Part shown: in pieces, positions 50,152 through 63,324 of the stretch
Position numbering within the stretch: position 1 is the first letter of the stretch
Layout: every line of letters starts with the position of its first letter
From: Lachnospiraceae bacterium
Lineage (GTDB): Bacteria > Bacteroidota > Bacteroidia > Bacteroidales > Muribaculaceae
Length of the DNA: 64,000 nucleotides
Reading direction: 5' to 3'
NCBI GenBank assembly: GCA_023663655.1
Contig: JAMPGZ010000001.1
Coordinates: forward strand, 439,861-503,860
The notes under the pieces: generated by a model
What the model saw: only the letters and a program-made list of their open reading frames with translations
Database searches by the model: none
Told to the model about the DNA's origin: nothing
Program-made: the position numbers and the translations under genes

Positions 50152-50155
50152 AGTG

Positions 50156-50226
50156 TTGTCTTACCTGGATTCGAACCAAGACAGGCAGAACCAAAAACTG
50201 CAGTGCTACCATTACACCATAAGACA
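50156..50226 (-). tRNA. tRNA-Gln (TTG)
   Basis: A complete 71-nt tRNA. The acceptor stem pairs TGTCTTA (from 50226) with TAAGACA and the discriminator is A. The anticodon loop TTTTGGT gives TTG, and the T-loop is GGTTCGAATCC. CCA is not encoded. It has its own promoter and terminator. Confidence 0.95.
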
Positions 50227-50268
50227 ATCCTAATTGCCCAAACATCGAAGCCGATGTCTAAAGCACTG

Positions 50269-50299
50269 CAAAGATAAATAGTTTTTTTTAATTATGCAA
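50269..50299 (-). promoter_or_regulatory. Promoter of tRNA-Gln
   Basis: TATCTTTG on the minus strand (50276-50269) with TTG (50299-50297) 20 bases upstream. It is divergent from the acyltransferase promoter. Confidence 0.65.
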
Positions 50300-50313
50300 G
50301 CCCGACGCTAAAT

Positions 50314-50345
50314 TTTGCATTAATGAGTTATATTTAGTAACTTTG
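50314..50345 (+). promoter_or_regulatory. Promoter of the acyltransferase operon
   Basis: TTTG (50314-50317) and TAACTTTG (50338-50345) with exact 20-base spacing. The leader is about 17 nt. Confidence 0.75.
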
Positions 50346-50368
50346 TAAATTATTGCAAGATAATACAG

Positions 50369-51202
50369 ATGAATACCGAAATAAAGCCTACCGTGCTTGA
50401 CTTCAACGACATTGCGGCTATGGTGCCGAAATTGTCATCGCATGAGCGACTGGTCAACAAAGCCTTGCATTGGCTGTCGGTGGACAAAGTCAATGCCGTT
50501 CACGAAAAATATTGCCACACTCCAGGACCTGAATTTGCCCGGAATCTGCTCAAAGATTTCGACATAGACCTCCGTGTGGATGGCAAAGAGATTCTTGAGA
50601 ATCTTCCTGAAGGAGCTTTTGTGGCCGTGAGCAACCATCCGTTTGGAGCACTCGACGGCATCTCACTCATAGCCCTCCTCACTCAATATCGCCCGGAATT
50701 CAAGGTGATGGTCAACATGGTGTTGAACCACATCTCGGCGATGCGCCCCAACTTCATAGCTGTCGACGCGCTCGCCTCCGACGACCCCGCCAAAAAAGCA
50801 GTGTCGATGAACGGCATAAAGCAGGCAATCATGCAGGTGAGAAAGGGTCAGCCTGTGGGATTCTTCCCCGCCGGCGCCGTGAGCAAGATAAACAGCCGCC
50901 TGCGCATCGAGGATCGCCAATGGCAACCCACCATCATAAGGCTGATACAGCAACTCGGAGTGCCGGTGGTGCCGATATATTTCCACGGACACAACAGCAC
51001 GTGGTTCAACATACTCGGGCTTATCGACTGGCGGCTGCGCACGCTGCGACTGCCGGCTGAGGTGTGGAAAAAATGCCACTCCACCATCCATGTGTCGGTG
51101 GGCGACATCATTCCCGCATCCGAACTCAAAGCCCACGGATCGCTCGACGAACTCGGAGAGTTCCTGAAAAACAAAACTTATCAGTTAAGGTCACGTAAAT
51201 GA
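50369..51202 (+). CDS. PlsC-like lysophospholipid/glycine-lipid acyltransferase
   Basis: A 277-residue cytoplasmic or membrane-associated acyltransferase. The active-site box is NHPFGALDG (His-x5-Asp, the variant common in hemolysin/OlsA-like Bacteroidota proteins), and the substrate box is GFFPAGAVSK. It ends with VGDIIPASEL. Related Bacteroides proteins O-acylate glycine lipids, but the usual partner N-acyltransferase gene is not adjacent, so the substrate is unknown. The stop overlaps the sigma-54 activator start by 4 bases. Confidence 0.8.
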   Translation: MNTEIKPTVLDFNDIAAMVPKLSSHERLVNKALHWLSVDKVNAVHEKYCHTPGPEFARNLLKDFDIDLRVDGKEILENLPEGAFVAVSNHPFGALDGISLIALLTQYRPEFKVMVNMVLNHISAMRPNFIAVDALASDDPAKKAVSMNGIKQAIMQVRKGQPVGFFPAGAVSKINSRLRIEDRQWQPTIIRLIQQLGVPVVPIYFHGHNSTWFNILGLIDWRLRTLRLPAEVWKKCHSTIHVSVGDIIPASELKAHGSLDELGEFLKNKTYQLRSRK

Positions 51203-52419
51203 AGCCGGTAGATATATCAGCGGAAATACAGCAAGCCAAATCACGGTTTGGAATCGTAGGCAATGCCCCGGCACTGACTGCGGCGATCCAACGTGCCATC
51301 CGTGTGGCACCCATCGACCTGTCGGTGCTCATCACCGGCGAAAGCGGAACCGGAAAAGAATTTTTCCCTCAGATCATACACCAATACGGAGCCAGAAAAC
51401 ACTCGAAATATATCGCCGTAAACTGCGGCGCCATCCCTGAGGGCACAATCGACTCCGAGCTGTTCGGCCATGAAAAAGGGGCGTTCACCGGCGCGGTGGC
51501 ATCGCGAAAAGGATACTTTGAAGAAGCCGACGGCGGAACCATATTCCTTGACGAAGTCGCCGAACTCCCTCTCACCACCCAAGCGCGCCTGCTGCGAGTG
51601 CTGGAGAGCGGAGAGTTCATCAAGGTAGGCTCATCGACAGTGCAACGCACCAACATCCGCATAGTCGCCGCCACCAATGTCGATATGCTGAAAGCGGTGG
51701 AGAGCGGCAAGTTTCGCGAGGATCTCTATTACCGACTTTCCACTATACACATCAGTGTGCCGCCGTTGCGTGAACGCGGAAATGACATACTGCTGCTCGC
51801 CCGCAAATTTGCCGCCGATTTCGCCGAACGCTACCGAATGCCTGCTATAGAATTTGATCCGGAAGCCTCCGAGATGCTTCTGCGCTTCCCCTGGCCGGGC
51901 AATGTGCGACAGCTCAAAAATGTGGTCGAGCAGATAGCTCTGTTTGACGCAGGCAACACCGTAAGCTCCGCCGAGCTATCACAATATCTCCCCGCAGGAG
52001 CCGGGATTTACACCCCTGCAATCTCCGAGTCGGGCATACACTCCTACGCAGCCGAGCGCGAAGTGCTGTTCAACATGATATTCCGCATGAGGGAAGAGAT
52101 CGACTCTCTGCGGGCATCGCTAAGCGCCATGTCGCGCGCTCCGCAGCCCGTAGCCTCCTACGAACCGACAAAGCCGGTGATGGAGATGCCCGGAACACTC
52201 GTGAAATACTCTCCGGTGGAGTCAGTGTTTAACCACACCGCGACACAGGTGATGCCCATCGACGCGGAAGATGCCGGAATGACATTGGAAGCGACAGAAC
52301 GCGAGACCATCAAACGCGCGCTCGAACGCAACGAAGGCAGGCGCAAAGCCACCGCCACCGAACTAAACATCTCGGAAAGAACTCTCTACCGAAAAATAAA
52401 GGAATATGGACTTGAATAG
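51199..52419 (+). CDS. Sigma-54-dependent AAA+ activator without sensory domain
   Basis: A 406-residue regulator that begins almost directly with the AAA+ domain: Walker A GESGTGKE (47-54), the sigma-54 contact loop GAFTGA (94-99), Walker B GGTIFLDE (112-119) and the arginine-finger region FREDLYYRLS. A linker of about 100 residues leads to a C-terminal Fis-type helix-turn-helix (KATATELNISERTLYRKIKE). No receiver, GAF or PAS domain is present, so control must come from expression level or partner proteins. The gene overlaps its upstream neighbour by 4 and lptE by 14 bases, within an envelope-biogenesis cluster. Confidence 0.9.
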   Translation: MKPVDISAEIQQAKSRFGIVGNAPALTAAIQRAIRVAPIDLSVLITGESGTGKEFFPQIIHQYGARKHSKYIAVNCGAIPEGTIDSELFGHEKGAFTGAVASRKGYFEEADGGTIFLDEVAELPLTTQARLLRVLESGEFIKVGSSTVQRTNIRIVAATNVDMLKAVESGKFREDLYYRLSTIHISVPPLRERGNDILLLARKFAADFAERYRMPAIEFDPEASEMLLRFPWPGNVRQLKNVVEQIALFDAGNTVSSAELSQYLPAGAGIYTPAISESGIHSYAAEREVLFNMIFRMREEIDSLRASLSAMSRAPQPVASYEPTKPVMEMPGTLVKYSPVESVFNHTATQVMPIDAEDAGMTLEATERETIKRALERNEGRRKATATELNISERTLYRKIKEYGLE

Positions 52420-52966
52420 AATCCCTTTCAGAAAAATAGCGGGAAAACTCTCCTTCAACAGGGCTACGATATGGGTAGCTCTGCTGAGTTGCATACTCCT
52501 GACTCAAAGCTGCCGCATAAACTTCACCCTCAACGGCTCGGCGATAGACTATACCGTGTATAAAACCATATCGGTATCCAACTTCCCGATCAGAGCCGCA
52601 CTGGTGTATCCGCCACTGCAACAGACATTTGAAAACGCTCTTCTCGACTATATCACCCGCAACACCCGCCTGCAAGTGGTCGACCACGGAGCCGACCTTG
52701 AAATGACCGGCGAAATAACAGGATACTCACTCTCCCCACAAGCGGTGACCGAAAACGCACTTGCGTCGAAGACCCGCCTCACGATCACTGTACGTGTGAA
52801 ATACACCGACACCAAAAACGAGAAAAACGACGTCGACCAGTCATTCTCAGCCTATCAGGATTTTGACAGCTCAGAGATGCTCACCGACGTGCAGGATCAA
52901 TTGTGCACAGAGATCACCGAACAGCTTGTAGACCTCATTTTCAACGCCACACTCGGAAACTGGTAA
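52406..52966 (+). CDS. lptE: LptE-like LPS-assembly lipoprotein
   Basis: A 186-residue lipoprotein with lipobox LTQSC (Cys36) after a long N-terminal leader. The mature part matches the LptE family in Bacteroidota (SCRINFTLNGSAIDY, then FENALLDYITRNTRL). LptE plugs the LptD barrel that inserts lipopolysaccharide into the outer membrane. It overlaps the activator gene by 14 bases. Confidence 0.82.
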   Translation: MDLNRIPFRKIAGKLSFNRATIWVALLSCILLTQSCRINFTLNGSAIDYTVYKTISVSNFPIRAALVYPPLQQTFENALLDYITRNTRLQVVDHGADLEMTGEITGYSLSPQAVTENALASKTRLTITVRVKYTDTKNEKNDVDQSFSAYQDFDSSEMLTDVQDQLCTEITEQLVDLIFNATLGNW

Positions 52967-52973
52967 TCACGGA

Positions 52974-53759
52974 ATGATGAAGAAGTCAGATGCGGAAATA
53001 TTGAAAGAACTGCTTGCCGACCCGTCAAAAAAGGTCAGCCCGGAGTGGTGTGACGCTGTGAGCCGCAAGAATCCTTACTTCACCCTGCCGGCAATGCTTG
53101 AACTGGAACGCAACGTCAACACAGGTGGGGACTCCGACCGGAGGAAAAAACTCATACAGCGTGTAGCCATGAACAGTGCATCGCCCGAAATGCTTTACCG
53201 CCTTACAGAACCACTCGGACAGGCACAGAACAATTTCTATCCCGAGGAAGAGCCCAAAGAACCGGCATCGACCGAGGAGGTGATCGACACGTTCATAACC
53301 ACCTATGGCGGAAGCGACAACGAAGAAACCGCTCTTTTAGAAAAGCTCATTTTCAACCCGGTGCCTGATTACGCCCTCCTTCTTTCCGAAGAGGAGGGAA
53401 GAAGCCTCCCGGCTGAAACCGACGCTGCCGACGACACTCAGGAGAGCCGCATAAACTCGTTCATCCTGAAAAGCCGTGAGCACCACGGACACTTCCCTCC
53501 GGCAACCGAAACACCGGCTCCGGCTCCCAAGCCCGTGCCCGCCAAAAAAGAACCGATTCAAGAGCCTGCCACTCAGGATGACACGCTTCTGAGCGAGAGT
53601 TTGGCTAAAATTTATATAAAACAGCGTCGATATGCCAAGGCTTATGAAATTATAAGCAATTTAAGTTTGAAATATCCGGAAAAAAGTATTTACTTTGCAG
53701 ACCAATTGCGTTTTTTGCAGAAACTGGTCATAAATCAGCAATATATAAAACAGAAATAA
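52974..53759 (+). CDS. Conserved protein of unknown function between lptE and secG
   Basis: A 261-residue soluble protein without a signal peptide or membrane span. The N-terminal part (DAEILKELLADPSKKVSPEW) is helical, and the middle is low-complexity and Pro/Glu-rich (ETPAPAPKPVPAKKE). The C-terminal 65 residues (ESLAKIYIKQRRYAKAYEII, then SLKYPEKS) form one or two TPR-like helices. I do not recognise a function. It is 1 base before secG, so the two are co-transcribed. Confidence 0.65.
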   Translation: MMKKSDAEILKELLADPSKKVSPEWCDAVSRKNPYFTLPAMLELERNVNTGGDSDRRKKLIQRVAMNSASPEMLYRLTEPLGQAQNNFYPEEEPKEPASTEEVIDTFITTYGGSDNEETALLEKLIFNPVPDYALLLSEEEGRSLPAETDAADDTQESRINSFILKSREHHGHFPPATETPAPAPKPVPAKKEPIQEPATQDDTLLSESLAKIYIKQRRYAKAYEIISNLSLKYPEKSIYFADQLRFLQKLVINQQYIKQK

Positions 53760-53760
53760 C

Positions 53761-54132
53761 ATGTATATCTTAGTTATCACACTTACTGTAATCGCATCAA
53801 TCCTTATGATCGGAGTGGTGCTCATTCAAAAATCAAAAGGAGGAGGTCTTTCTTCTCAATTCGGCGGAGCCAATCAGGTAATGGGCGTTCGCCGCACCAA
53901 CGACTTCATTGAAAAGACCACATGGTGGCTCGCTGCCGCAATCGGCGTATTGGCTATTGTAGGCGTTTTCGTTATGCCCCGCAACCTTGTTCAGGGCACT
54001 TCACGCGTGGCTCCCGCTGCCGTTGAGCAGACTCAGCCCGCCGACTTCAACACCAACGTAGGCGACGCTCCCGCTCTTCCCGTAGCTCCTGCCGCTCAGG
54101 AAGCTCCTGCTGAAACACCCGCTCAGAACTAA
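53761..54132 (+). CDS. secG: Preprotein translocase subunit SecG
   Basis: A 123-residue membrane protein of the SecYEG channel. The first span (YILVITLTVIASILMIGVVL), the conserved cytoplasmic loop QKSKGGGLSSQFGGANQ and the second span (WWLAAAIGVLAIVGVFV) are typical. A periplasmic tail of about 45 residues rich in Ala/Pro/Glu is a lineage extension. A terminator follows. Confidence 0.92.
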   Translation: MYILVITLTVIASILMIGVVLIQKSKGGGLSSQFGGANQVMGVRRTNDFIEKTTWWLAAAIGVLAIVGVFVMPRNLVQGTSRVAPAAVEQTQPADFNTNVGDAPALPVAPAAQEAPAETPAQN

Positions 54133-54153
54133 CATCACATCCACTAAAGATAC

Positions 54154-54193
54154 ATCCGGACTATCACCATCGTGGCGGTCCGGATTTTTTTTT
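54154..54193 (+). terminator. Intrinsic terminator after secG
   Basis: An 8-bp stem (ATCCGGAC 54154-54161 with GTCCGGAT 54178-54185) is followed by a run of nine T. Confidence 0.85.
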
Positions 54194-54249
54194 GCAATCC
54201 AATCGGCAATTTTATTTACAATATGTGATCGGGAATACCATCTTTTCAT

Positions 54250-54257
54250 TATCTTTG
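54250..54257 (+). promoter_or_regulatory. Candidate promoter for the TlpA/plug-protein operon
   Basis: TATCTTTG matches TAnnTTTG, 57 bases before the ATG at 54315. The -33 region is poor. Confidence 0.5.
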
Positions 54258-54314
54258 CAATACCCTTCCCCCACATTAATTAACATCTTTAACCTCTTTA
54301 ACTTTATTAACACC

Positions 54315-56384
54315 ATGGAAAGAAATGTAATGTGGATGATTCTGTTTCTTCTGTCACTTGCTGTAACCAAGCCGGTTGTTGCCGCACAGTCCGGCAGCCA
54401 TCCCGGCGCACGCATAATCGAATACCCCGATTACGAATGCAAGAAATCGGGAATACTTAACATCGAGAGAATCACTATTGACGGCGACAGCACACGCGTG
54501 GATTTTCTGCTGAAATCAAAACCCGGATATTTCGGAACCGTAGGGAAAAACACACGTCTGCGCGACAACGCCTCATCGGTCGAATATCTTCCCGTCAGGG
54601 CTGAAGGCATTGAATTTGACAAGGCAATCCGCACAAAGAAAGACAGTGTCGTGCGCTACTCTCTGTTTTATGAGGCATTGCCCGCCACAGTCAAGAAAAT
54701 CGATATGCTTGAGGGCACTTGGGACATCTTCGGCATAAGACTCGACGGGGAGAAAGCCGCTAAACCGGCTCGCGTGAAGAATCCCGAGTCACTGATAGTG
54801 ACCAAAAAGCACTCCGACACTCCGGCACCCATATTCTCGCGTGGACGCATGACAATCTCCGGCATCATCGACAGCTATGACCCACGCGCTTATGGCGACC
54901 TCATCCAAGTAAACTTGGAGAACTGTATCGGACAAAAACGCCTCACCACCAATATACACATAAATCCCGACGGCAGCTTTTCAAAAGAGCTGGATATGCT
55001 GAGTTCCGGCGAACTGACATTGCTATTTACCAATATTGATATGCTTTCGCTATACGTAGAACCGGGAGAAGATCTCTTCATTTATGTCGATCCCGAAATA
55101 ATGAAGCTCCGGCAAGCCGGCGTGAAGACCGACAAGCCGACATTCAGTTTCGGTGGCTCTCTCGGCGAAATCAACAATGGCATAATCAACGCGCCGAAGC
55201 TCTCATACGTGCGCTATGACAACCGGAAATCACAGCAGGAAAATCACCGTAAAATTGACGACACCGCTGAAAAGTGGACTGAAAAGACCGAGAATTATAT
55301 CTCAGCCAATCCTTCCCTGCATCCTATAGCCGCACGGTATCTAAGAAGCAATATTCTATCATTCACCGCATTCAATCACCTCGATCATCTTGACCGGAGC
55401 AATTCTTCCGAGAAAAAGGACACGGCATTTATACTGAAGATTTTCTCCGAGGTGTTGCCGCCGGTATGGACTGCCGACTCCATTATTCTAACAACCGACA
55501 TGGCTTCAGGATTGATGAACCGCATCTCCTACTGCCGTCTTCCTTATCTGACCGGAGCGATACGGAATCATGGTGTGACTCTGGATTCCGCGGCAATGCG
55601 GAAGCTCATTTATGCCCGCAAAAAACGTGAGACAGAAAAAGAAAGTAATCTTTCCGGCTCGCAGGAACTGGGACAGTCAAAGCCGGAACCGGCGAAGAAG
55701 AGAATCAATCAACTTGCCCACCCGATCAATAGCACAGAAAAATATACCCGAGCCTTAATGGACTTCGCCGGGCTTACGGAAGCCTCGCTTTTTATGCAAG
55801 TCAACGAAGCGGCATACGTGTGCAGTTATCTTATTCCTCACGATCTCGGTCCCATCGAAGAAACAATGGCTACCATCGACTCACTGCACCTCATCACGCG
55901 TCCCGAATTGCGTGACGCAGTCGCCGAATACTACGAAGGTCTTTATGCGACCCGCCCTTACCATCTACCCGATACCGAAGGCGGGAAAATACTCAAGTCA
56001 ATCATTGCGCCTTACAAGGGCAAAGCTGTGATAGTCGATTTCTGGACCTTGGGGTGTGGACCTTGCCGCTTGGAAATAGAGACCTGGAAAGAGTTCCGAG
56101 ACAAAAACCGTACAGGTAAGGACTATGTGTTTGTCTTTGTCACCAATGACGAAGAATCGCAGGAAGAGCCTTACGAAAAGTATGTGGCAAAGAACCTGAA
56201 CAACGACATCACACTGCGCATCCCTCACAAAGACTTCTTGCTGATAAAGGAGGAGCTGAACTTCAACTCTTATCCACGCAAAATTCTCTTTGACCCCGAA
56301 GGACGTGTCGTCAATTCCAATTTCCGCTTCTACTCTTCTGAGATTTTGGGAAAGTCGCTCCAGAAATTAGGAATCGAGCTATAA
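54315..56384 (+). CDS. Exported TlpA-like thioredoxin-fold protein
   Basis: A 689-residue periplasmic protein. The ATG at 54315 gives a signal peptide (NVMWMILFLLSLAVTKPVVAAQ); an earlier in-frame start at 54192 overlaps the promoter. About 540 residues of beta-rich and helical sequence of unknown type precede a C-terminal TlpA-like thioredoxin domain (AVIVDFWTLGCGPCRLEIE) with the redox pair Cys581-Cys584 and FLLIKEELNFNSYPRKILFD. It probably reduces disulfides of exported proteins. It ends 6 bases before the plug-domain gene, so the three genes to 58858 appear to form one operon. Confidence 0.8.
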   Translation: MERNVMWMILFLLSLAVTKPVVAAQSGSHPGARIIEYPDYECKKSGILNIERITIDGDSTRVDFLLKSKPGYFGTVGKNTRLRDNASSVEYLPVRAEGIEFDKAIRTKKDSVVRYSLFYEALPATVKKIDMLEGTWDIFGIRLDGEKAAKPARVKNPESLIVTKKHSDTPAPIFSRGRMTISGIIDSYDPRAYGDLIQVNLENCIGQKRLTTNIHINPDGSFSKELDMLSSGELTLLFTNIDMLSLYVEPGEDLFIYVDPEIMKLRQAGVKTDKPTFSFGGSLGEINNGIINAPKLSYVRYDNRKSQQENHRKIDDTAEKWTEKTENYISANPSLHPIAARYLRSNILSFTAFNHLDHLDRSNSSEKKDTAFILKIFSEVLPPVWTADSIILTTDMASGLMNRISYCRLPYLTGAIRNHGVTLDSAAMRKLIYARKKRETEKESNLSGSQELGQSKPEPAKKRINQLAHPINSTEKYTRALMDFAGLTEASLFMQVNEAAYVCSYLIPHDLGPIEETMATIDSLHLITRPELRDAVAEYYEGLYATRPYHLPDTEGGKILKSIIAPYKGKAVIVDFWTLGCGPCRLEIETWKEFRDKNRTGKDYVFVFVTNDEESQEEPYEKYVAKNLNNDITLRIPHKDFLLIKEELNFNSYPRKILFDPEGRVVNSNFRFYSSEILGKSLQKLGIEL

Positions 56385-56390
56385 CCCGAT

Positions 56391-57800
56391 ATGAGATTCA
56401 TCCTCGCAATACTGTCTCTATGCTTTGCGTCTCCGGCTTTACCGATTGAAAGCCGGACACCGACCACGCATATCACAATCGATGTGCCCGACAGCATTGC
56501 CACGAAGTCAACTACGGTTTCAGTGTCAGTGACTGACGGTGGCTTGCCTGCCGAGAATTCGACAACAATAGGCTGCGAGATATTGCTCAACTCCGAGCTT
56601 AAAGGCAACATTGAAACCCCCCAATATTATTTCGAGAATCCAGACGCAGGAACCGACATCGACCTTGACCTGCTGATGATGACACAAGGATGGAGGAGAT
56701 ATGACTGCACCGACATCCTGAATGACTCTCTGCCGAAGATTGACTTTCCGGTAGAACAATCGCAGTCCATAAGCGGTCACGTCGAAAAGTCATTCAACCG
56801 CCATCCAAAAGGGATGAAAGTGGTGCTTTTCTCCCCCACAACGCTTGAAATGACTCAGTTTCAACTCGGCGACAGCAACCGGTTTGTCATCTCGGGGCTT
56901 GATTTCGTAGACGGCACTCCGTTCACCCTCGAGGCTCAGACGAAAGATGGAGGCACATCGACCGTTTCAATACATATCGACTCTGTCGCAGCTCCTAAAG
57001 TATCGCCTCTTATGGAATATGCCTCCAACTCACAACAAGCCGACAGCACAACACTATCTTTCTCACAATATGTGAAGAAACAACCACGCACCCCGTCACT
57101 GCTCGATATGCAGGAGCTGGACGAAGTGAGCGTTACCGCACGCAAGAAGCAGAAATGGAGCAGCCGAGGCAACATCAATCCTCACCGCAGCTATAAAGAC
57201 GGCGATGAGAAAATCGCCCGGTTTTCCACTATGGAATCCCTTCTCAGGAGCCTGAGTGTGAGAATCCGACACTCCGACAATGACGGCGGAGCATTGCCCG
57301 AACCACAATTTGGAGAATATGTCACGAACGACTTCATTCCAACACCCGTGTTCATCGACGGTTTCCGAAGCGAACAGCGTGAAGCCTTTGACCTACATCC
57401 GCAGAACGTGAACTCCATCGAGTATTTCCGTCCCGGCGATGCACGTGTCGCCTCCTATACACCCGAAGCAATCTATACAGGGGTATTGCTCATAACCACC
57501 AAATATGGTTCGGAGGGAAAAAGAACACAGCAACCGTCAATGGCAAGCATCACCCCACTCGGCTATCAGCCTCCGGTGGAATTTTATGTGCCTAAATACC
57601 CGGAAGCGGAAGATGCACTGTATCATTATCCAGGCTCCCGCCCCACTCTATATTGGAATCCGAAACTATCGACGGGGGCAAATGGCAAATTCAGTATTGA
57701 GATACCGGAAAGCACTTGCCCTAAATTAAACATCTCTTTGCAAGGCATAACCCACGGCGGTAAGATTATCGATATAACTAAAGCGATGCAATCAAAATGA
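56391..57800 (+). CDS. Exported plug-domain protein corresponding to the C-terminal half of a macroglobulin/plug protein
   Basis: A 469-residue protein with its own signal peptide (RFILAILSLCFASPALP). The N-terminal Ig-like part (ITIDVPDSIATKSTTVSVSV, then QGWRRYD) and the later TonB-plug-like segment (LDEVSVTARKK, then DGFRSEQREAFDLHPQNVNS, and GVLLITTKYG) normally occur in the second half of about 800-900-residue Bacteroidota proteins with an MG2-like first half. No beta-barrel follows, so it is not a complete TonB receptor. The matching first half is encoded directly downstream with a 4-base overlap (ATGA). Confidence 0.65.
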   Translation: MRFILAILSLCFASPALPIESRTPTTHITIDVPDSIATKSTTVSVSVTDGGLPAENSTTIGCEILLNSELKGNIETPQYYFENPDAGTDIDLDLLMMTQGWRRYDCTDILNDSLPKIDFPVEQSQSISGHVEKSFNRHPKGMKVVLFSPTTLEMTQFQLGDSNRFVISGLDFVDGTPFTLEAQTKDGGTSTVSIHIDSVAAPKVSPLMEYASNSQQADSTTLSFSQYVKKQPRTPSLLDMQELDEVSVTARKKQKWSSRGNINPHRSYKDGDEKIARFSTMESLLRSLSVRIRHSDNDGGALPEPQFGEYVTNDFIPTPVFIDGFRSEQREAFDLHPQNVNSIEYFRPGDARVASYTPEAIYTGVLLITTKYGSEGKRTQQPSMASITPLGYQPPVEFYVPKYPEAEDALYHYPGSRPTLYWNPKLSTGANGKFSIEIPESTCPKLNISLQGITHGGKIIDITKAMQSK

Positions 57801-58858
57801 ATGTACTACGCATATATCTGAGTTTGACGGCGTGGCTTTTGACCGCGATGTGTGCTGCGGCACAGGAGCCATTGGATGCCGACAGCATCGCTTCGCTGTT
57901 TCTGGAACATTATGCCAAGGCACCACAGGAAAAGGCGTATGTGCATACCGACAGGGATTATTACGCCGCAGGAGACACCGTGTGGTTTCGCGCCTACATC
58001 GTGGATGCCGCATCCAATCAATTGACCGACCGATCCAAATTCGTGTACCTCGAATTGCTTGACAACACCGCAGATACCCTGATACGGCGGATAAAGATCA
58101 AAGCCGACACAGCTGGAGTGTTTGCCAATGCCCTACCGCTCTCCTCCCGCATGAAGAGCGGCACTTACACCCTTGCCGCATATACGCAGTGGATGCAAAA
58201 CTTTGGCGAGGAGATGTTCTTCAAAAAACGGCTCACAGTCGTAAATCCCAAAGACAGTATAAATCCAAGCTCCAAGGCTCGTGCTGTAAGCAAAATCGCT
58301 TTGGACATTATGCCCGAAGGGGGCAATCTCATAGCCGGACATACACAACGTGTTGCCTTCAAGGCTATGGGTGATAACGGACTGGGGGTGGACGTGCAAG
58401 CCCGGCTTGTCAATGCGGCAGGTGACGTAATCAAAGAAACCGCATCACGGCACCTCGGCATGGGTTACTTATTGGTCAACGCCGATGCCGGAGAAGAGCT
58501 GTGGCTTGAGGCATTCACCGCCGACGGGCTTTCGTGCCGCACGAAACTGCCCGAAGCGCTTGAGCAAGGCGCCACCCTCTCGGTGAACCAACACAAAGGG
58601 GTAGTGCTGATACAGCCTTTCGTCACTCCCGGCATCAATATTGAAAACATGGCGTTAGTCATCTATGGAGCCGGCAATCTTATGGTCATAGAGCTTGCCG
58701 ATGCCTCACCGATCAGAATGCCGAGCCGCGATCTTAAGCCCGGAGTGGTCAATATAGCCCTAATTGACCGCGAGTCACGACGTGTACTTGCCGAAAGGCT
58801 CGTTTTCATCCGCGACCGGGAGATTTCCGACATTGATATTTCAGTTACTGTGGAGTGA
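57797..58858 (+). CDS. Exported MG2-like protein corresponding to the N-terminal half of the same family
   Basis: A 353-residue exported protein (signal peptide NVLRIYLSLTAWLLTAMCAAAQ). It has the typical opening of MG2/macroglobulin-like Bacteroidota proteins: EKAYVHTDRDYYAAGDTVWF, RSKFVYLELLD and SGTYTLAAYTQWMQNFGE. It ends at RVLAERLVFIRD plus a short strand, just where full-length relatives continue into the domain that starts the upstream gene. The halves are thus separate polypeptides in swapped order. A 199-base AT-rich gap without genes follows. Confidence 0.65.
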   Translation: MNVLRIYLSLTAWLLTAMCAAAQEPLDADSIASLFLEHYAKAPQEKAYVHTDRDYYAAGDTVWFRAYIVDAASNQLTDRSKFVYLELLDNTADTLIRRIKIKADTAGVFANALPLSSRMKSGTYTLAAYTQWMQNFGEEMFFKKRLTVVNPKDSINPSSKARAVSKIALDIMPEGGNLIAGHTQRVAFKAMGDNGLGVDVQARLVNAAGDVIKETASRHLGMGYLLVNADAGEELWLEAFTADGLSCRTKLPEALEQGATLSVNQHKGVVLIQPFVTPGINIENMALVIYGAGNLMVIELADASPIRMPSRDLKPGVVNIALIDRESRRVLAERLVFIRDREISDIDISVTVE

Positions 58859-59008
58859 TTCAAGATTTGAATTCGAGAAAACAGGAACCATAGCTCCAAC
58901 AAATCACAATGCAATTAAAATTAGGGGCATAGATAGCAATTCAATATAAAAAAGGTGGAATTTATAAAATATTTCACTATGCCACGTATAAATTATAAAT
59001 AAAATGCT

Positions 59009-59016
59009 TATATTTG
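59009..59016 (+). promoter_or_regulatory. Candidate promoter of the Lrp-type gene
   Basis: TATATTTG matches TAnnTTTG, 41 bases before the ATG at 59058, within strongly AT-rich DNA. Confidence 0.5.
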
Positions 59017-59057
59017 CTATACCTTAAAGAACTATTCATAACAGAAATTCAATATTA

Positions 59058-59519
59058 ATGGAGAAAATAGATAATCTTGACCGCAAAATTCTTGAAATAG
59101 TGATGCGGAACGCCCGTATCCCCTCCAAAGATGTAGCTATGGAGTGCGGAGTGTCACGTGCCGCCATCCATCAGCGTCTGCAACGCCTTATTGACTTGAA
59201 GGTTATCACCGGCTCAGGCTACCATGTGAACCCCAAAGTGCTCGGCTACCGCACTTGCACCTACATAGGGGTGAATCTTGAACGCGGCGCCATGTACCGT
59301 GATGTGGTTCCGGAGCTGGAGAAGATACCGGAGATAGTGGAATGCCACTTCACCACCGGTCCTTACACAATGCTCATAAAGCTCTACGCCCGCGACAACG
59401 AGCACCTGATGGAATTGCTCAACGACCGCATCCAGATGATTCATGGCGTGACCGGAACCGAGACGCTCATCTCCCTCGACCACAGCATCGACCGGGAAAT
59501 ACCCATCAACTACGATTGA
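59058..59519 (+). CDS. Lrp/AsnC-family transcriptional regulator
   Basis: A 153-residue regulator with an N-terminal winged helix-turn-helix (LDRKILEIVMRNARIPSKDV, then CGVSRAAIHQRLQRLIDLKV) and the C-terminal RAM ligand-binding domain (VECHFTTGPYTMLIKLYARD). It probably senses an amino acid. It is monocistronic with its own promoter and terminator, and no metabolic partner is adjacent. Confidence 0.9.
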   Translation: MEKIDNLDRKILEIVMRNARIPSKDVAMECGVSRAAIHQRLQRLIDLKVITGSGYHVNPKVLGYRTCTYIGVNLERGAMYRDVVPELEKIPEIVECHFTTGPYTMLIKLYARDNEHLMELLNDRIQMIHGVTGTETLISLDHSIDREIPINYD

Positions 59520-59542
59520 CAATAATCCGTCATACCGTCACC

Positions 59543-59577
59543 GAGGGCATAGCTTATAGCGATTTGCCCTCTTTTTT
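59543..59577 (+). terminator. Terminator after the Lrp-type gene
   Basis: A 7-bp stem (GAGGGCA 59543-59549 with TGCCCTC 59565-59571) is followed by TTTTTT. Its T-run overlaps the -33 box of the next promoter. Confidence 0.75.
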
Positions 59578-59606
59578 GTATCTACGCCGAAGATTTGCTA
59601 TTTTTG
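59575..59606 (+). promoter_or_regulatory. Promoter of the AraC-surE pair
   Basis: TTTG (59575-59578) and TATTTTTG (59599-59606) with exact 20-base spacing. The leader is about 22 nt. Confidence 0.75.
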
Positions 59607-59634
59607 CAATCACAACGCTACACTTCCGCAAACT

Positions 59635-60573
59635 ATGTTTTCATCGCCATTCAACACCTCATCAATGCCTGCCGACGGAATCAGATATGCAACCGTATCC
59701 GAGCCGGCAAACGCCCAAAATGCTTCGCTGGCGGCATTGAGAATCATTGACGCAGGCTACTTCGGAAATCTGCATGGTGAATGGTCGTCATCAGCCGACG
59801 ACGACACAGCCGATGGATATGTGATGCTTTACTGCATCGACGGTTGCGCGGACTATACAGTGGGAGGCAACTCGACTGCCATCACACGCCACCGGTTCAT
59901 AATACATGACGGACGAGCCGATGCCGCATACACGGTTCCTCCGGGGAAAAGCTGGTCGGTGTACCGCATACGGTTTACCGGCACGATAGCCGGAAGTCTT
60001 GTAGGCGAAATAGCCAACGGAGAGTTTTTTTCTCCCGGCGATATACTCGGCGCGGAAATAGCAGGAAGGATTGAAGAGATTCTCGTGAACATCGAACGCG
60101 ACGCCTCTCTTGAATCCCAGCTATATTGCTCGGCGCTCCTCCACTATGTCATCGGAACGGTGCGCCGATTCACCACCATGGTCGAGCACAATTCCACCGA
60201 CAGTTCGGAAGAGATTGTCGATGCTGCCATACGCTACATGAAAGAGAATCTGTCGAAGAAATTGTCGCTTCAGGACCTCACCGAAATGACCAACTATTCA
60301 AAACCTCATTTCATGACAATCTTCAAGCGTGCCACGGGACACAGCCCCATGAGCTATTTCAATATGCTCAAGATAATAAGAGCCTGCACCCTTCTCGACA
60401 CTACCGACATGAAAATAAACCAGATATGTTTTGCAATCGGCATAAATGATATGTTCTATTTCTCCCGGCTGTTCAAGAAATATATGCACGTATCTCCATC
60501 AGCCTACCGCACCCGACATAACAATCAGGTTGACAATAACGATATTGATACACAACAAACTATAAAATCATGA
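59635..60573 (+). CDS. AraC-family transcriptional regulator
   Basis: A 312-residue regulator. The N-terminal cupin-like sensing domain (GYVMLYCIDGCADYTVGG, then VPPGKSWSVYRIRF) is followed by a C-terminal pair of helix-turn-helix motifs (LSLQDLTEMTNYSKPHFMTI and INQICFAIGINDMFYFSRLF). AraC proteins of this type often control sugar-use genes; whether it controls the pectin locus 30 kb away is unknown. It overlaps surE by 4 bases. Confidence 0.9.
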   Translation: MFSSPFNTSSMPADGIRYATVSEPANAQNASLAALRIIDAGYFGNLHGEWSSSADDDTADGYVMLYCIDGCADYTVGGNSTAITRHRFIIHDGRADAAYTVPPGKSWSVYRIRFTGTIAGSLVGEIANGEFFSPGDILGAEIAGRIEEILVNIERDASLESQLYCSALLHYVIGTVRRFTTMVEHNSTDSSEEIVDAAIRYMKENLSKKLSLQDLTEMTNYSKPHFMTIFKRATGHSPMSYFNMLKIIRACTLLDTTDMKINQICFAIGINDMFYFSRLFKKYMHVSPSAYRTRHNNQVDNNDIDTQQTIKS

Positions 60574-61337
60574 CACACGAAAAGCCCCTCATACTCATAG
60601 CCAACGATGACGGAATCAATGCACCGGGCATCCACGAGTTGATAAACTATGTCGCCGATATGGGACAGATAGTGGCGATCGCTCCCGACGCGCCGCGCTC
60701 GGGACAATCATCGGCAATTTCAGTAAACAAAGTGCTGAGAGTGACACGCCACAATGATTACAACGGAGCGGAGATGTATTCTGTCAACGGCACACCGGTA
60801 GACTGCGTGAAACTGGGAATGCACGCCGTACTCCCCCGTCGCCCCGACCTCATACTGTCGGGCATAAACCACGGATCCAATTCAGGAAACTCAATAATAT
60901 ATTCCGGCACAATGGGCGCTGTGCTTGAAGGATGTATGCTTGGAATTCCTTCAGTGGGATTCTCCTATCTGAGCCACGATGAGAAAGCCGACATTTCGGT
61001 GTGCCGCGACATCGTGAGAGAAGTTACGTCCAAAGTAATAGCACAAGGACTGCCGCATGATATATGCCTCAACGTGAATATCCCCAAAAGCGACCGCATA
61101 AACGGAATGAAGGTGGTGAGGGCGGCACGAGGATTCTGGACGGAAGAGTATGCCGATTATGTGGATCCACACGGCAAACCATTTTATTGGCTTACCGGAA
61201 AATTCCACAATGAGGAGCCTGACAATCCCTCGACCGACCTCTATTGGCTCGAAAGAGGATATGCCTCGGTAGTGCCATGCCGTCCCGACCAGTCAGCGAC
61301 TGATCAGATAGACAATATTGAAAATCTTCTCGGTTAA
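60570..61337 (+). CDS. surE: 5'-nucleotidase SurE
   Basis: A 255-residue metal-dependent phosphatase acting on nucleoside monophosphates and other survival-related substrates. Metal-binding ANDDGINAPG (Asp13-Asp14), APRSGQSSAIS, GINHGSNSG and the SGTMGAVLEG loop are intact. It is coupled to the AraC gene by ATGA. Its stop overlaps the convergent ferredoxin gene by 4 bases through a shared TTAA. Confidence 0.93.
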   Translation: MTHEKPLILIANDDGINAPGIHELINYVADMGQIVAIAPDAPRSGQSSAISVNKVLRVTRHNDYNGAEMYSVNGTPVDCVKLGMHAVLPRRPDLILSGINHGSNSGNSIIYSGTMGAVLEGCMLGIPSVGFSYLSHDEKADISVCRDIVREVTSKVIAQGLPHDICLNVNIPKSDRINGMKVVRAARGFWTEEYADYVDPHGKPFYWLTGKFHNEEPDNPSTDLYWLERGYASVVPCRPDQSATDQIDNIENLLG

Positions 61338-62089
61338 CGCAAAGGGCACAGATACTGCCCTTTGTTTTTTGTGCGCGAGCCATACTCCACGGCATGAACC
61401 GGGCACACATGATAGCAGGACAGGCACATGGTGCAGTTGTCGCCCCATACCGGACGGCGATCTCCGTCAAGCGTGATATTGCCCATAGGACAATGAGCCG
61501 CACACTTGCCACATCCGTAACACCTCGTGCTATCACAGCGGAACGGACGCGGTGACTGCATGAAACGCTCGAATAGCGGATAAAACACTCTCGACTTCAA
61601 GCCAGAGAAGTCTCCGGGATGCACATCATCACCCTCCCAGCCGAGACGGATGCGCTTGGCAATGTCATCAATACGCTCCGGAACCCGTGAAAGTTTTTCA
61701 CCCTCCACCTCCTTAGCGTCGACATCAAATCCCGGAAGAAGCACGTAGGTGTTGGGCATAATCACAGAGTAAGCCCCCACCGGAACCCATCCACGCGACT
61801 TCACCTGTGCTCTCCACTGCCGATGTGTAAGCCCTATGTCGTCGCCACAACTGCACACCATGAAGTGACGCGACGACGCCGGAGCCGACACCCGTGCCAT
61901 AAATTCCACCACGAGTTTGGGCATACCCCACGAGTGAACAGGAAATACCCACACCACACGCCCGTCAGCAATATCAGCCAAAGAACGCATTGCCTGAAAT
62001 GACATCTCTCTCACCTCATCGCCAAGCGACTCTCCAAGCCTATGCGCGAGGTAGCGGGAATTGCCGGTGCCTGAAAAAAAGAATATCAT
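61334..62089 (-). CDS. EFR1-type flavodoxin-ferredoxin fusion protein
   Basis: A 251-residue cytoplasmic electron-transfer protein. The N-terminal flavodoxin fold has the FMN phosphate loop SGTGNS (6-11) and FPVHSWGMP. The C-terminal bacterial ferredoxin part has two 4Fe-4S motifs, CYGCGKCAAHCP and CTMCLSCYHVCP. Such proteins are common in anaerobic Bacteroidota and Firmicutes and their partners are unknown. The start overlaps the DUF2027-Smr stop by 4 bases. Confidence 0.88.
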   Translation of the reverse strand: MIFFFSGTGNSRYLAHRLGESLGDEVREMSFQAMRSLADIADGRVVWVFPVHSWGMPKLVVEFMARVSAPASSRHFMVCSCGDDIGLTHRQWRAQVKSRGWVPVGAYSVIMPNTYVLLPGFDVDAKEVEGEKLSRVPERIDDIAKRIRLGWEGDDVHPGDFSGLKSRVFYPLFERFMQSPRPFRCDSTRCYGCGKCAAHCPMGNITLDGDRRPVWGDNCTMCLSCYHVCPVHAVEYGSRTKNKGQYLCPLR

Positions 62090-63138
62090 CGTATAGTGAC
62101 TTGAGTGGCGCCAAAACCGTACTCCCTGAATGAAGCATCCTGTGCAGTGCAGGTTTTATATTTATGCTTCAGCTCTTTCAATATGGCATTGCGAAGCACA
62201 CCCTCGCCCTTGCCGTGGATGAACACTATCTTGCGTCCGGGATGACGCACGTTTTCGCTCATGACACGGTTGAATTCCTTCAACTGCACGGAAAGAATAT
62301 CGGAATTAGACAACCCTGCCGTAGCATCAAGGAGCTCGTCAATGTGAAGATCCACCTCAATTACATCGGGATTAATCTGCTTCTTAGCCTTTGTCGGCGC
62401 AGATTGGGTTTTAACCGAGTCAACAGCTTTTTTCTTCTTCAACCCCTCTTCAAGACGCGAGCTGTCGATGAACACCGGACGCTGTGGCACATCATTTTTC
62501 ACGATGTCAAAGGCGAGCACCGGAGTATCGAAGTACACATTGTCGCGGAAACAGTGGAGCTTGAAGAATTTCGTGTTGTCGACGGCATATTCCACCACAC
62601 CCGGCGACTTCATCTTAAACTCGCCCTGTGGCTTAAATGCCACATACTGCACGGCGATGCGGTCGATGCGGCTCACCATGTCGCGTGTCACGTGCTCAAG
62701 ATGCTCCTGATAACCCGGCTCGATCATTCCGGCAAAGCGTGTGACCCAGCCCTCGCCGTCGGCACGGGTGAGATAAGTGACATACAGGGCATAGTTGGAG
62801 TCATTCACAAGGTAAGCGTCATATTCGGTGGTAGTGAGATGCTTTATCTCCTCAGCCTCATATCCGAGCACGATATTGAGCAATTCCCCTTCGGGAGATT
62901 CCTTCACCGGCTCATCCTTCTTAGTCTCTGTCTTAGGCGCCGTTTCGGCTTTTGGAGCCACGTATTTAGGCGAAGAAGTTGATTTAGGCGCCGCCGGAGT
63001 CACAACCACGCACTCCTTTATCAACACCGGTGTTTCAAATCCATCCTCGTCAACGTATGCTATGTTACCATCTATTTTCGTGATGCGTCCGCCACCCACC
63101 GCATTGAGGTAGCGCACTATATCTCCAATCTGTGCCAT
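62086..63138 (-). CDS. DUF2027-Smr domain protein
   Basis: A 350-residue protein from the ATG at 63138 (an upstream TTG at 63144 is not needed). The N-terminal small beta-domain (AQIGDIVRYLNAVGGGRITK), a Pro/Lys-rich linker and the DUF2027 beta-domain (about 85-240) are followed by a C-terminal Smr nuclease-type domain (VDLHIDELLD, then KIVFIHGKGEGVLRNAILKE). The DxH and HGxG elements of Smr are present, so DNA or RNA nicking is possible. It is the first gene of a two-gene operon with the ferredoxin protein. Confidence 0.85.
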   Translation of the reverse strand: MAQIGDIVRYLNAVGGGRITKIDGNIAYVDEDGFETPVLIKECVVVTPAAPKSTSSPKYVAPKAETAPKTETKKDEPVKESPEGELLNIVLGYEAEEIKHLTTTEYDAYLVNDSNYALYVTYLTRADGEGWVTRFAGMIEPGYQEHLEHVTRDMVSRIDRIAVQYVAFKPQGEFKMKSPGVVEYAVDNTKFFKLHCFRDNVYFDTPVLAFDIVKNDVPQRPVFIDSSRLEEGLKKKKAVDSVKTQSAPTKAKKQINPDVIEVDLHIDELLDATAGLSNSDILSVQLKEFNRVMSENVRHPGRKIVFIHGKGEGVLRNAILKELKHKYKTCTAQDASFREYGFGATQVTIR

Positions 63139-63324
63139 GTTCAAACAGTTTTATTTGTAAAGTTACTCTTTGCATGGCTATATTGCACCCGTCTGTTAAT
63201 TAAATATTGTTAAATGAATCTCATCCATAAGCTTCCTCGCTTTGATTCAGTTCACCCGCAGAAAGAAGCCCACTATATTCTGACTATATTTTCAATGGAC
63301 AGCCTAAATCTCAGATAAAATTAG

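What the first reader, a model, noticed from the sequence alone, without database searches (positions are those of the whole stretch)
56391..58858. Macroglobulin/plug protein split into two exported halves in reversed order
The downstream gene encodes the typical first half and stops exactly where relatives continue, while the upstream gene adds its own signal peptide to the second half. The two overlap by 4 bases. A swap of this kind implies that the halves assemble as separate chains in the periplasm, and it follows a TlpA-like redox gene.
Basis: partly seen in the sequence, partly recalled or inferred. Interest (0 to 1): 0.55.

Follow-up and report, generated by a model that had tools for sequence, protein, structure and literature searches.

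The report
Macroglobulin–plug protein split, halves swapped
Two neighbouring bacterial genes encode the back half and the front half of one large exported protein related to the immune protein complement C3, in swapped order and each with its own export signal; this swap arose more than once in these bacteria and suggests that the protein is built from two separate chains.

Summary
Confirmed. Window 56391-57800 encodes the C-terminal half and 57797-58858 the N-terminal half of a protein that relatives make as one ~900-aa chain (MG2...plug). Each half has its own signal peptide; the genes overlap by 4 bases. It is no artefact or one-off: 11 of 397 sampled genomes of the family carry split halves. 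In all 10 where order can be read, the C-half is upstream. Each has one N-half and one to six C-halves. A single origin is rejected in both half-trees (p 0.004 and 0.011). Reciprocal empty sites show that the pair changes place as a unit. Both halves are under purifying selection. Full-length relatives are alpha-2-macroglobulin derivatives; two long ones keep a thioester domain. The cut falls in the domain corresponding to MG6, where complement C3's two chains also meet. In the window the N-half keeps that domain's first strand and the C-half the rest, which suggests assembly by strand complementation. Assembly itself is inferred. The TlpA neighbour was found in no other split locus searched for it. 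Tandem full-length copies in relatives suggest duplication plus reciprocal loss. New variant of a known kind.

The parts
54250..54257 (+). TATCTTTG, candidate Bacteroidota -7 box (TAnnTTTG) of the TlpA/C-half/N-half operon; no other + strand match before 59009
   Evidence: motif recalled, weak as evidence (39 in window against 31 expected)
54090..58989 (+). block present here and absent between secG and the AsnC-type gene in G005; holds the TlpA-like gene and both halves
   Evidence: window 50153-54089 and 58990-63216 align to L074 positions only about 204 bases apart
54330..56384 (+). TlpA-like thioredoxin-fold gene (684 aa, CGPC); neighbour, not found beside the pair elsewhere
56391..57800 (+). 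C-half gene (469 aa): signal peptide, MG6-like domain without strand A, CarboxypepD_reg-like domain, plug, C-terminal Ig-like domain
56391..56450 (+). signal peptide of the C-half (approximate)
56460..56750 (+). MG6-like domain from strand B onward (TTHITIDV...SVTD...LLMMTQGW)
57117..57506 (+). TonB-box-like LDEVSVTA (residue 243) and plug domain
   Evidence: TonB-box reading recalled
57797..58858 (+). N-half gene (353 aa): signal peptide, MG2, MG4- and MG5-like domains; MG3-like domain of full-length relatives is missing
57797..57800 (+). ATGA overlap: start of N-half and stop of C-half
57797..57862 (+). signal peptide of the N-half (approximate)
57932..58192 (+). MG2 domain
   Evidence: residues 46-132
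58820..58855 (+). N-half tail EISDIDISVTVE, aligned with strand A of the MG6-like domain of full-length relatives

Best explanation
The two genes make the two chains of one periplasmic or surface macroglobulin-plug protein. A full-length ancestor, itself an alpha-2-macroglobulin relative with a TonB-receptor plug and without the thioester end, was probably duplicated in tandem. The upstream copy then lost its front half but kept an export signal, and the downstream copy lost its back half, which gives the order C-half, N-half. Translationally coupled, both chains are exported separately. They most likely join outside the cytoplasm by completing one shared beta-sandwich (the MG6-like domain): strand A from the N-half tail and the remaining strands from the C-half. 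The N chain acts as the common subunit, with one or several C (plug) chains as partners. Shown: anatomy, break point, recurrence, more than one origin, co-movement, purifying selection. Inferred: tandem duplication as the route, chain assembly, strand complementation, exchange of C chains, and any TonB-linked role of the plug.
For: Break point by alignment. 11 split genomes of 397; C upstream of N in 10 of 10 readable cases, directly adjacent in 8, with a 4-base overlap in 5. One N-half per genome, one to six C-halves. N and C trees give the same clades; one-clade AU p 0.00365 and 0.0114. Reciprocal empty sites. omega 0.11-0.25 in the finite comparisons within clade A at dS 0.30 or more. Strand A once per pair in clades A, B and D. 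Full-length tandem copies in relatives. MG fold by Foldseek and VIA.
Against: No physical evidence of assembly; no complex could be predicted here. The P0001 model is poor (pLDDT 46) and the full-length homologue model middling (pLDDT 65, pTM 0.45). C-halves outnumber N-halves, so some may act alone. In clade C the MG6-like motifs of the C-half are gone, so strand complementation cannot be general. The window genome has only one C-half, so exchange of C chains does not apply there. G007's N-half has an in-frame TAG. Most dS values are near saturation, and the G005/G010 N-halves give omega 0.47 at dS 0.08.
Confidence: 0.5

Rival explanations
1. The halves are independent exported proteins: after the split each took its own job, and adjacency is only history.
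For: Extra C-halves lie far from the N-half (G001, G136, G269). In G010 and G181 other genes lie between the halves. In clade C both halves have diverged strongly.
Against: No intact lone C-half was found in a genome without an N-half, and no split N-half in a genome without a C-half, in 397 genomes. The pair moves as a unit, the overlap is conserved across genera, and trees agree.
Confidence: 0.3
2. The pair is a decaying pseudogene or an assembly error of a full-length gene.
For: Broken full-length genes do exist in the family (G061, G079, G197, G222, G318, G006:C13), and G007's N-half holds a TAG.
Against: Broken genes keep the normal order and break at scattered places, and the 4 second pieces read have no signal peptide. 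The split pairs have reversed order, one break region, two signal peptides, low omega and recur in three genera.
Confidence: 0.03
3. The halves assemble, but held by an inter-chain disulfide made with help of the TlpA-like protein rather than by strand complementation.
For: The mature window N-half has one cysteine, Cys247, found in 5 of 5 clade A N-halves. C-half Cys106 is in 5 of 6 clade A C-halves that cover it. Neither is at these positions in the 5 full-length rows compared. The TlpA-like gene lies 6 bases upstream in the window.
Against: G263 has Cys247 but serine at 106. The TlpA-like gene is missing beside the other split loci searched. The two cysteines lie in different domains; their distance was not measured.
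Confidence: 0.1

Closest known systems
Full-length MG2...Plug exported proteins of Bacteroidota (~800-980 aa; own genome G000:C1:5621-8416)
   Same: Same domains in the same chain order when the halves are joined in thought; alignable over nearly the whole length.
   Different: One chain there; here two chains, genes in swapped order, MG3-like domain lost from the N-half.
Thioester alpha-2-macroglobulins of Bacteroidota that also carry a plug (L084 Cesiribacter, 1562 aa; L029, G055)
   Same: MG2, bait-region/MG6 region, CarboxypepD_reg-like (L084 only by Pfam) and Plug in the same order.
   Different: They continue with an A2M (MG7-type) domain and a TED with C-F-E-Q; the window pair has no such part and no CGEQ.
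Complement C3/C4/C5 (two or more chains)
   Same: Row of MG domains; in C3 half of MG6 comes from the beta-chain and the rest of the molecule from the alpha-chain (passage of PMC4974347; folds).
   Different: C3 is one gene cut after translation (recalled) and keeps thioester and anaphylatoxin domains; here two genes in swapped order and a plug.
SusC/BtuB-type TonB-dependent transporters
   Same: Plug domain, preceded by a CarboxypepD_reg-like domain in relatives and a TonB-box-like stretch.
   Different: No beta-barrel follows; about 100 residues remain after the plug.
Gene splits and permutations by tandem duplication with partial loss (recalled)
   Same: Expected to give the back half upstream of the front half.
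   Different: Here the pieces stay separate genes, both exported, and it happened more than once in one family.

Membership tests
MG2/Plug protein family of Bacteroidota | MG2 domain in the first half | tested here: met
   PF01835 E 6.9e-11, 42.8 bits against cut-off 32.8, in P0002
MG2/Plug protein family of Bacteroidota | Plug domain in the second half | tested here: inconclusive
   No Pfam hit in P0001; aligned to plug-bearing homologues, whose joint profile hits SusC/BtuB plugs
MG2/Plug protein family of Bacteroidota | single polypeptide | tested here: not met
   Two genes in reversed order
alpha-2-macroglobulin / complement family | row of MG domains starting at MG2 | tested here: met
   Full-length homologue model against C3, C5, A2M: Foldseek E 7.1e-21; VIA Z 12.7, rmsd 14.5 over 361 residues, and Z 11.3, rmsd 3.2 over 94 residues for MG2 alone. 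For P0002 itself only MG2 by Pfam
alpha-2-macroglobulin / complement family | thioester domain with C-x-E-Q | tested here: not met
   No CGEQ or GCGEQ in P0001 or P0002; cysteines at 11, 62, 106, 443 and at 19, 247; no TED by Pfam
TonB-dependent transporter | beta-barrel after the plug | tested here: not met
   C-half ends about 100 residues after the plug
TonB-dependent transporter | binding of TonB | not testable with these tools
   only a TonB-box-like LDEVSVTA at residue 243 (motif recalled)

The most novel reading that the evidence does not exclude
These bacteria repeatedly turned a plug-bearing alpha-2-macroglobulin relative into a modular two-chain receptor: one common N chain (MG2-MG5) that completes the MG6 sandwich of any of several plug chains. 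This places the chain boundary in the same domain as in complement C3, reached by gene rearrangement and not by proteolysis.
Probability: 0.25. Interest if true: 0.75.

Novelty: new variant of a known kind. Interest (0 to 1): 0.55.

Why it matters
It would be a clear natural case in which a multi-domain exported protein was cut and reordered more than once in the same region, with one copy of the shared strand kept per pair in three clades. It gives a ready-made split protein with a testable prediction (strand complementation), and it links a little-studied Bacteroidota family, macroglobulins with a TonB-receptor plug, to the two-chain design of complement C3.

Tried and rejected
Rejected: a one-off or assembly error (11 genomes); a single origin of all split halves; a general TlpA link; halves from two families; the DUF1573/Wzy/transglutaminase trio as a partner specific to the pair (relatives of the transglutaminase also occur in G002, G004 and G011, which gave no MG2/plug match). 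A search for repeats shared by the block's two ends found none of 9 or more bases, and GC content does not mark the block as foreign. Split pairs outside the family: in an order-wide sample of 393 genomes the short frames that I followed up (G483, G438, G548, G600) were contig ends or broken full-length genes; the tail is not listed by the tool. Structure of P0001 alone was too poor to use. Literature: five keyword searches for the MG2/plug or plug-A2M combination gave no paper or only papers whose listed titles and abstract openings were unrelated; some searches were for background, of which only search listings were seen, plus passages of PMC4974347. This covers open-access full texts only. 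Rows dropped before trees: one search left out rows spanning under 330 model positions and 8 named loci, rows spanning under 320 and 14 named loci; searches used 47 and 48 rows after dropping far outgroup or near-duplicate full-length rows.

Full report
Observation. The two genes are as described: C-half 56391-57800 (469 aa) and N-half 57797-58858 (353 aa), overlapping by ATGA. The TlpA-like gene (54330-56384) ends 6 bases before the C-half. One TAnnTTTG candidate promoter lies upstream of it at 54250 and none between it and 59009 on the + strand (motif recalled), so the three genes look like one operon.

What the halves are. P0002 has MG2. Full-length homologues of about 880-930 aa have MG2 in front and Plug behind (the Plug score is weak in some). 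Alignment of N parts and C parts puts the two window genes on the two sides of one break. The window genome also has a full-length paralogue of 931 aa at G000:C1, with SusC- and SusD-sized genes and a fasciclin-type lipoprotein upstream.

Fold and position of the cut. A model of a full-length Parabacteroides homologue (L092; pLDDT 65.2, pTM 0.45) matches complement C3, C5, TEP1 and A2M (Foldseek best E 7.1e-21; VIA Z 12.7 but rmsd 14.5 over 361 residues, which fits a flexible row of domains). Model residue 45 pairs with C3 105 and about 415 with the mid-530s, so by order the domains are MG2, MG3, MG4, MG5 and then MG6 (C3 domain limits recalled). The window N-half ends with a stretch aligned to the first strand of the MG6-like domain, and the C-half begins, after its signal peptide, at the second strand. 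In C3, half of MG6 comes from the beta-chain (passage of PMC4974347).

Relation to true macroglobulins. Longer members (1374-1587 aa open frames in the order search) exist. The two that I scanned, L084 and L029, have MG2, bait-region domain, Plug, A2M and TED with a G-C-F-E-Q thioester motif. So the family belongs with alpha-2-macroglobulins that carry a plug; the ~900-aa forms and the split pair lack the thioester end.

Spread. In 397 genomes of the family, N and C parts were found in 97 each. Split halves not explained by a contig end or a broken frame occur in 11: G000, G001, G005, G007, G009, G010, G013 (genus g1), G136, G181, G263 (g7) and G269 (g9). The C-half lies upstream of the N-half on the same strand in 10 of 10 readable cases; in G013 the halves are on different contigs. 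They are directly adjacent in 8, with a 4-base overlap in 5 (G000, G005, G007, G136, G263) and gaps of 34-56 bases in G269, G009 and G001. G010 and G181 have a DUF1573 gene, a Wzy_C/TPR gene and a transglutaminase-like gene between them. Each genome has one N-half; C-halves number 1 (G000, G263, G181) to 6 (G001), some incomplete at contig ends. I found no intact lone C-half in a genome without an N-half; G118 is unclear because its frame starts 75 bases from a contig end. In 393 genomes of the order no clean split was found outside the family among the rows that I followed up.

Origins. Clades A (window type) and C (G136, G181) form one group with 100/99 support in both careful trees. Clades B (G001, G009, G013) and D (G269) lie among full-length proteins. 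Forcing all split rows into one clade is rejected: p 0.00365 for 10 N-halves among 47 rows and 0.0114 for 19 C-halves among 48 rows. Each tree needs three changes. B and D may be one or two events. The group was named from architecture before the trees, but sampling and long branches remain a caution.

A unit. Relative to G005, the window has about 4.9 kb more between secG and the AsnC-type gene, holding the TlpA-like gene and both halves. G007 has C-half, C-half, N-half at a place (before the gene that begins VKVKKVLVSQPKP) where the window genome has only about 94 bases between flanking matches, some 12 kb from the window pair. So the two genes changed place together, or were lost in one place and kept in another, as a block.

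Selection and export. omega is 0.11-0.25 in the finite comparisons within clade A at dS 0.30 or more, including 0.25 between the two tandem C-halves of G007; it is 0.47 for the close pair of N-halves G005/G010 at dS 0.08 (most dS are high). All halves with complete starts have leaders above the 95th percentile of internal hydropathy (1.65): the N-halves of the window (1.76) and of G007 (1.98) are the weakest.

Strand logic. In clades A and D the N-half has a tail beyond MG5 and the C-half has little or no room for strand A. In clade B the N-half ends at MG5 and the C-half has an extra strand-like stretch after its signal peptide. So strand A is present once per pair in three clades, by alignment and by eye. 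In clade C the front of the C-half has been replaced and the argument cannot be made.

Route. Tandem full-length copies are common: two in G155 and G130, two or three in Mucilaginibacter loci. Reciprocal loss in a tandem pair gives C-half, N-half directly. A simple break of one gene would give the normal order; the broken genes seen (G061, G079, G197, G222, G318, G006:C13) have it, break at scattered positions and lack a second signal peptide in the 4 read.

Verdict. The split, its order, recurrence and co-movement are shown. Assembly, strand complementation and the common-subunit idea are inferences. The TlpA neighbour is specific to this genome as far as searched. A literature search found no description of the MG2/plug family or of the split (open-access papers only). 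The genus and family names are not given by the tools; a Bacteroidales lineage such as Muribaculaceae is my inference.

Noticed in passing
L084:9932-14617 and L029:52-4200; further 1374-1587-aa frames: Thioester alpha-2-macroglobulins of Bacteroidota with a TonB-receptor plug between the bait-region domain and the MG7-type A2M domain.
   Followed up: partly
L063:599-4597, L162:10078-14063, L164:8767-12761: A trio of DUF1573 protein, Wzy_C/TPR membrane protein and transglutaminase-like protein stands beside or between the halves in G010, G136 and G181.
   Followed up: partly
L162:15521-16129, L162:9429-10133, L163:6228-6860, L164:14196-14828: Each clade C C-half is preceded by a ~200-234-aa gene without a clear Pfam family; the three G136 C-halves share nearly identical first 30 residues but differ later.
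   Followed up: no
L061:6150-7205 (G007): The N-half of G007 has an in-frame TAG in a contig with many N; error or decay could not be told apart.
   Followed up: no
L064, L065, L066, L067 (G001): Six C-half paralogues at four places in a genome with a single N-half, two of the places with tandem pairs.
   Followed up: partly
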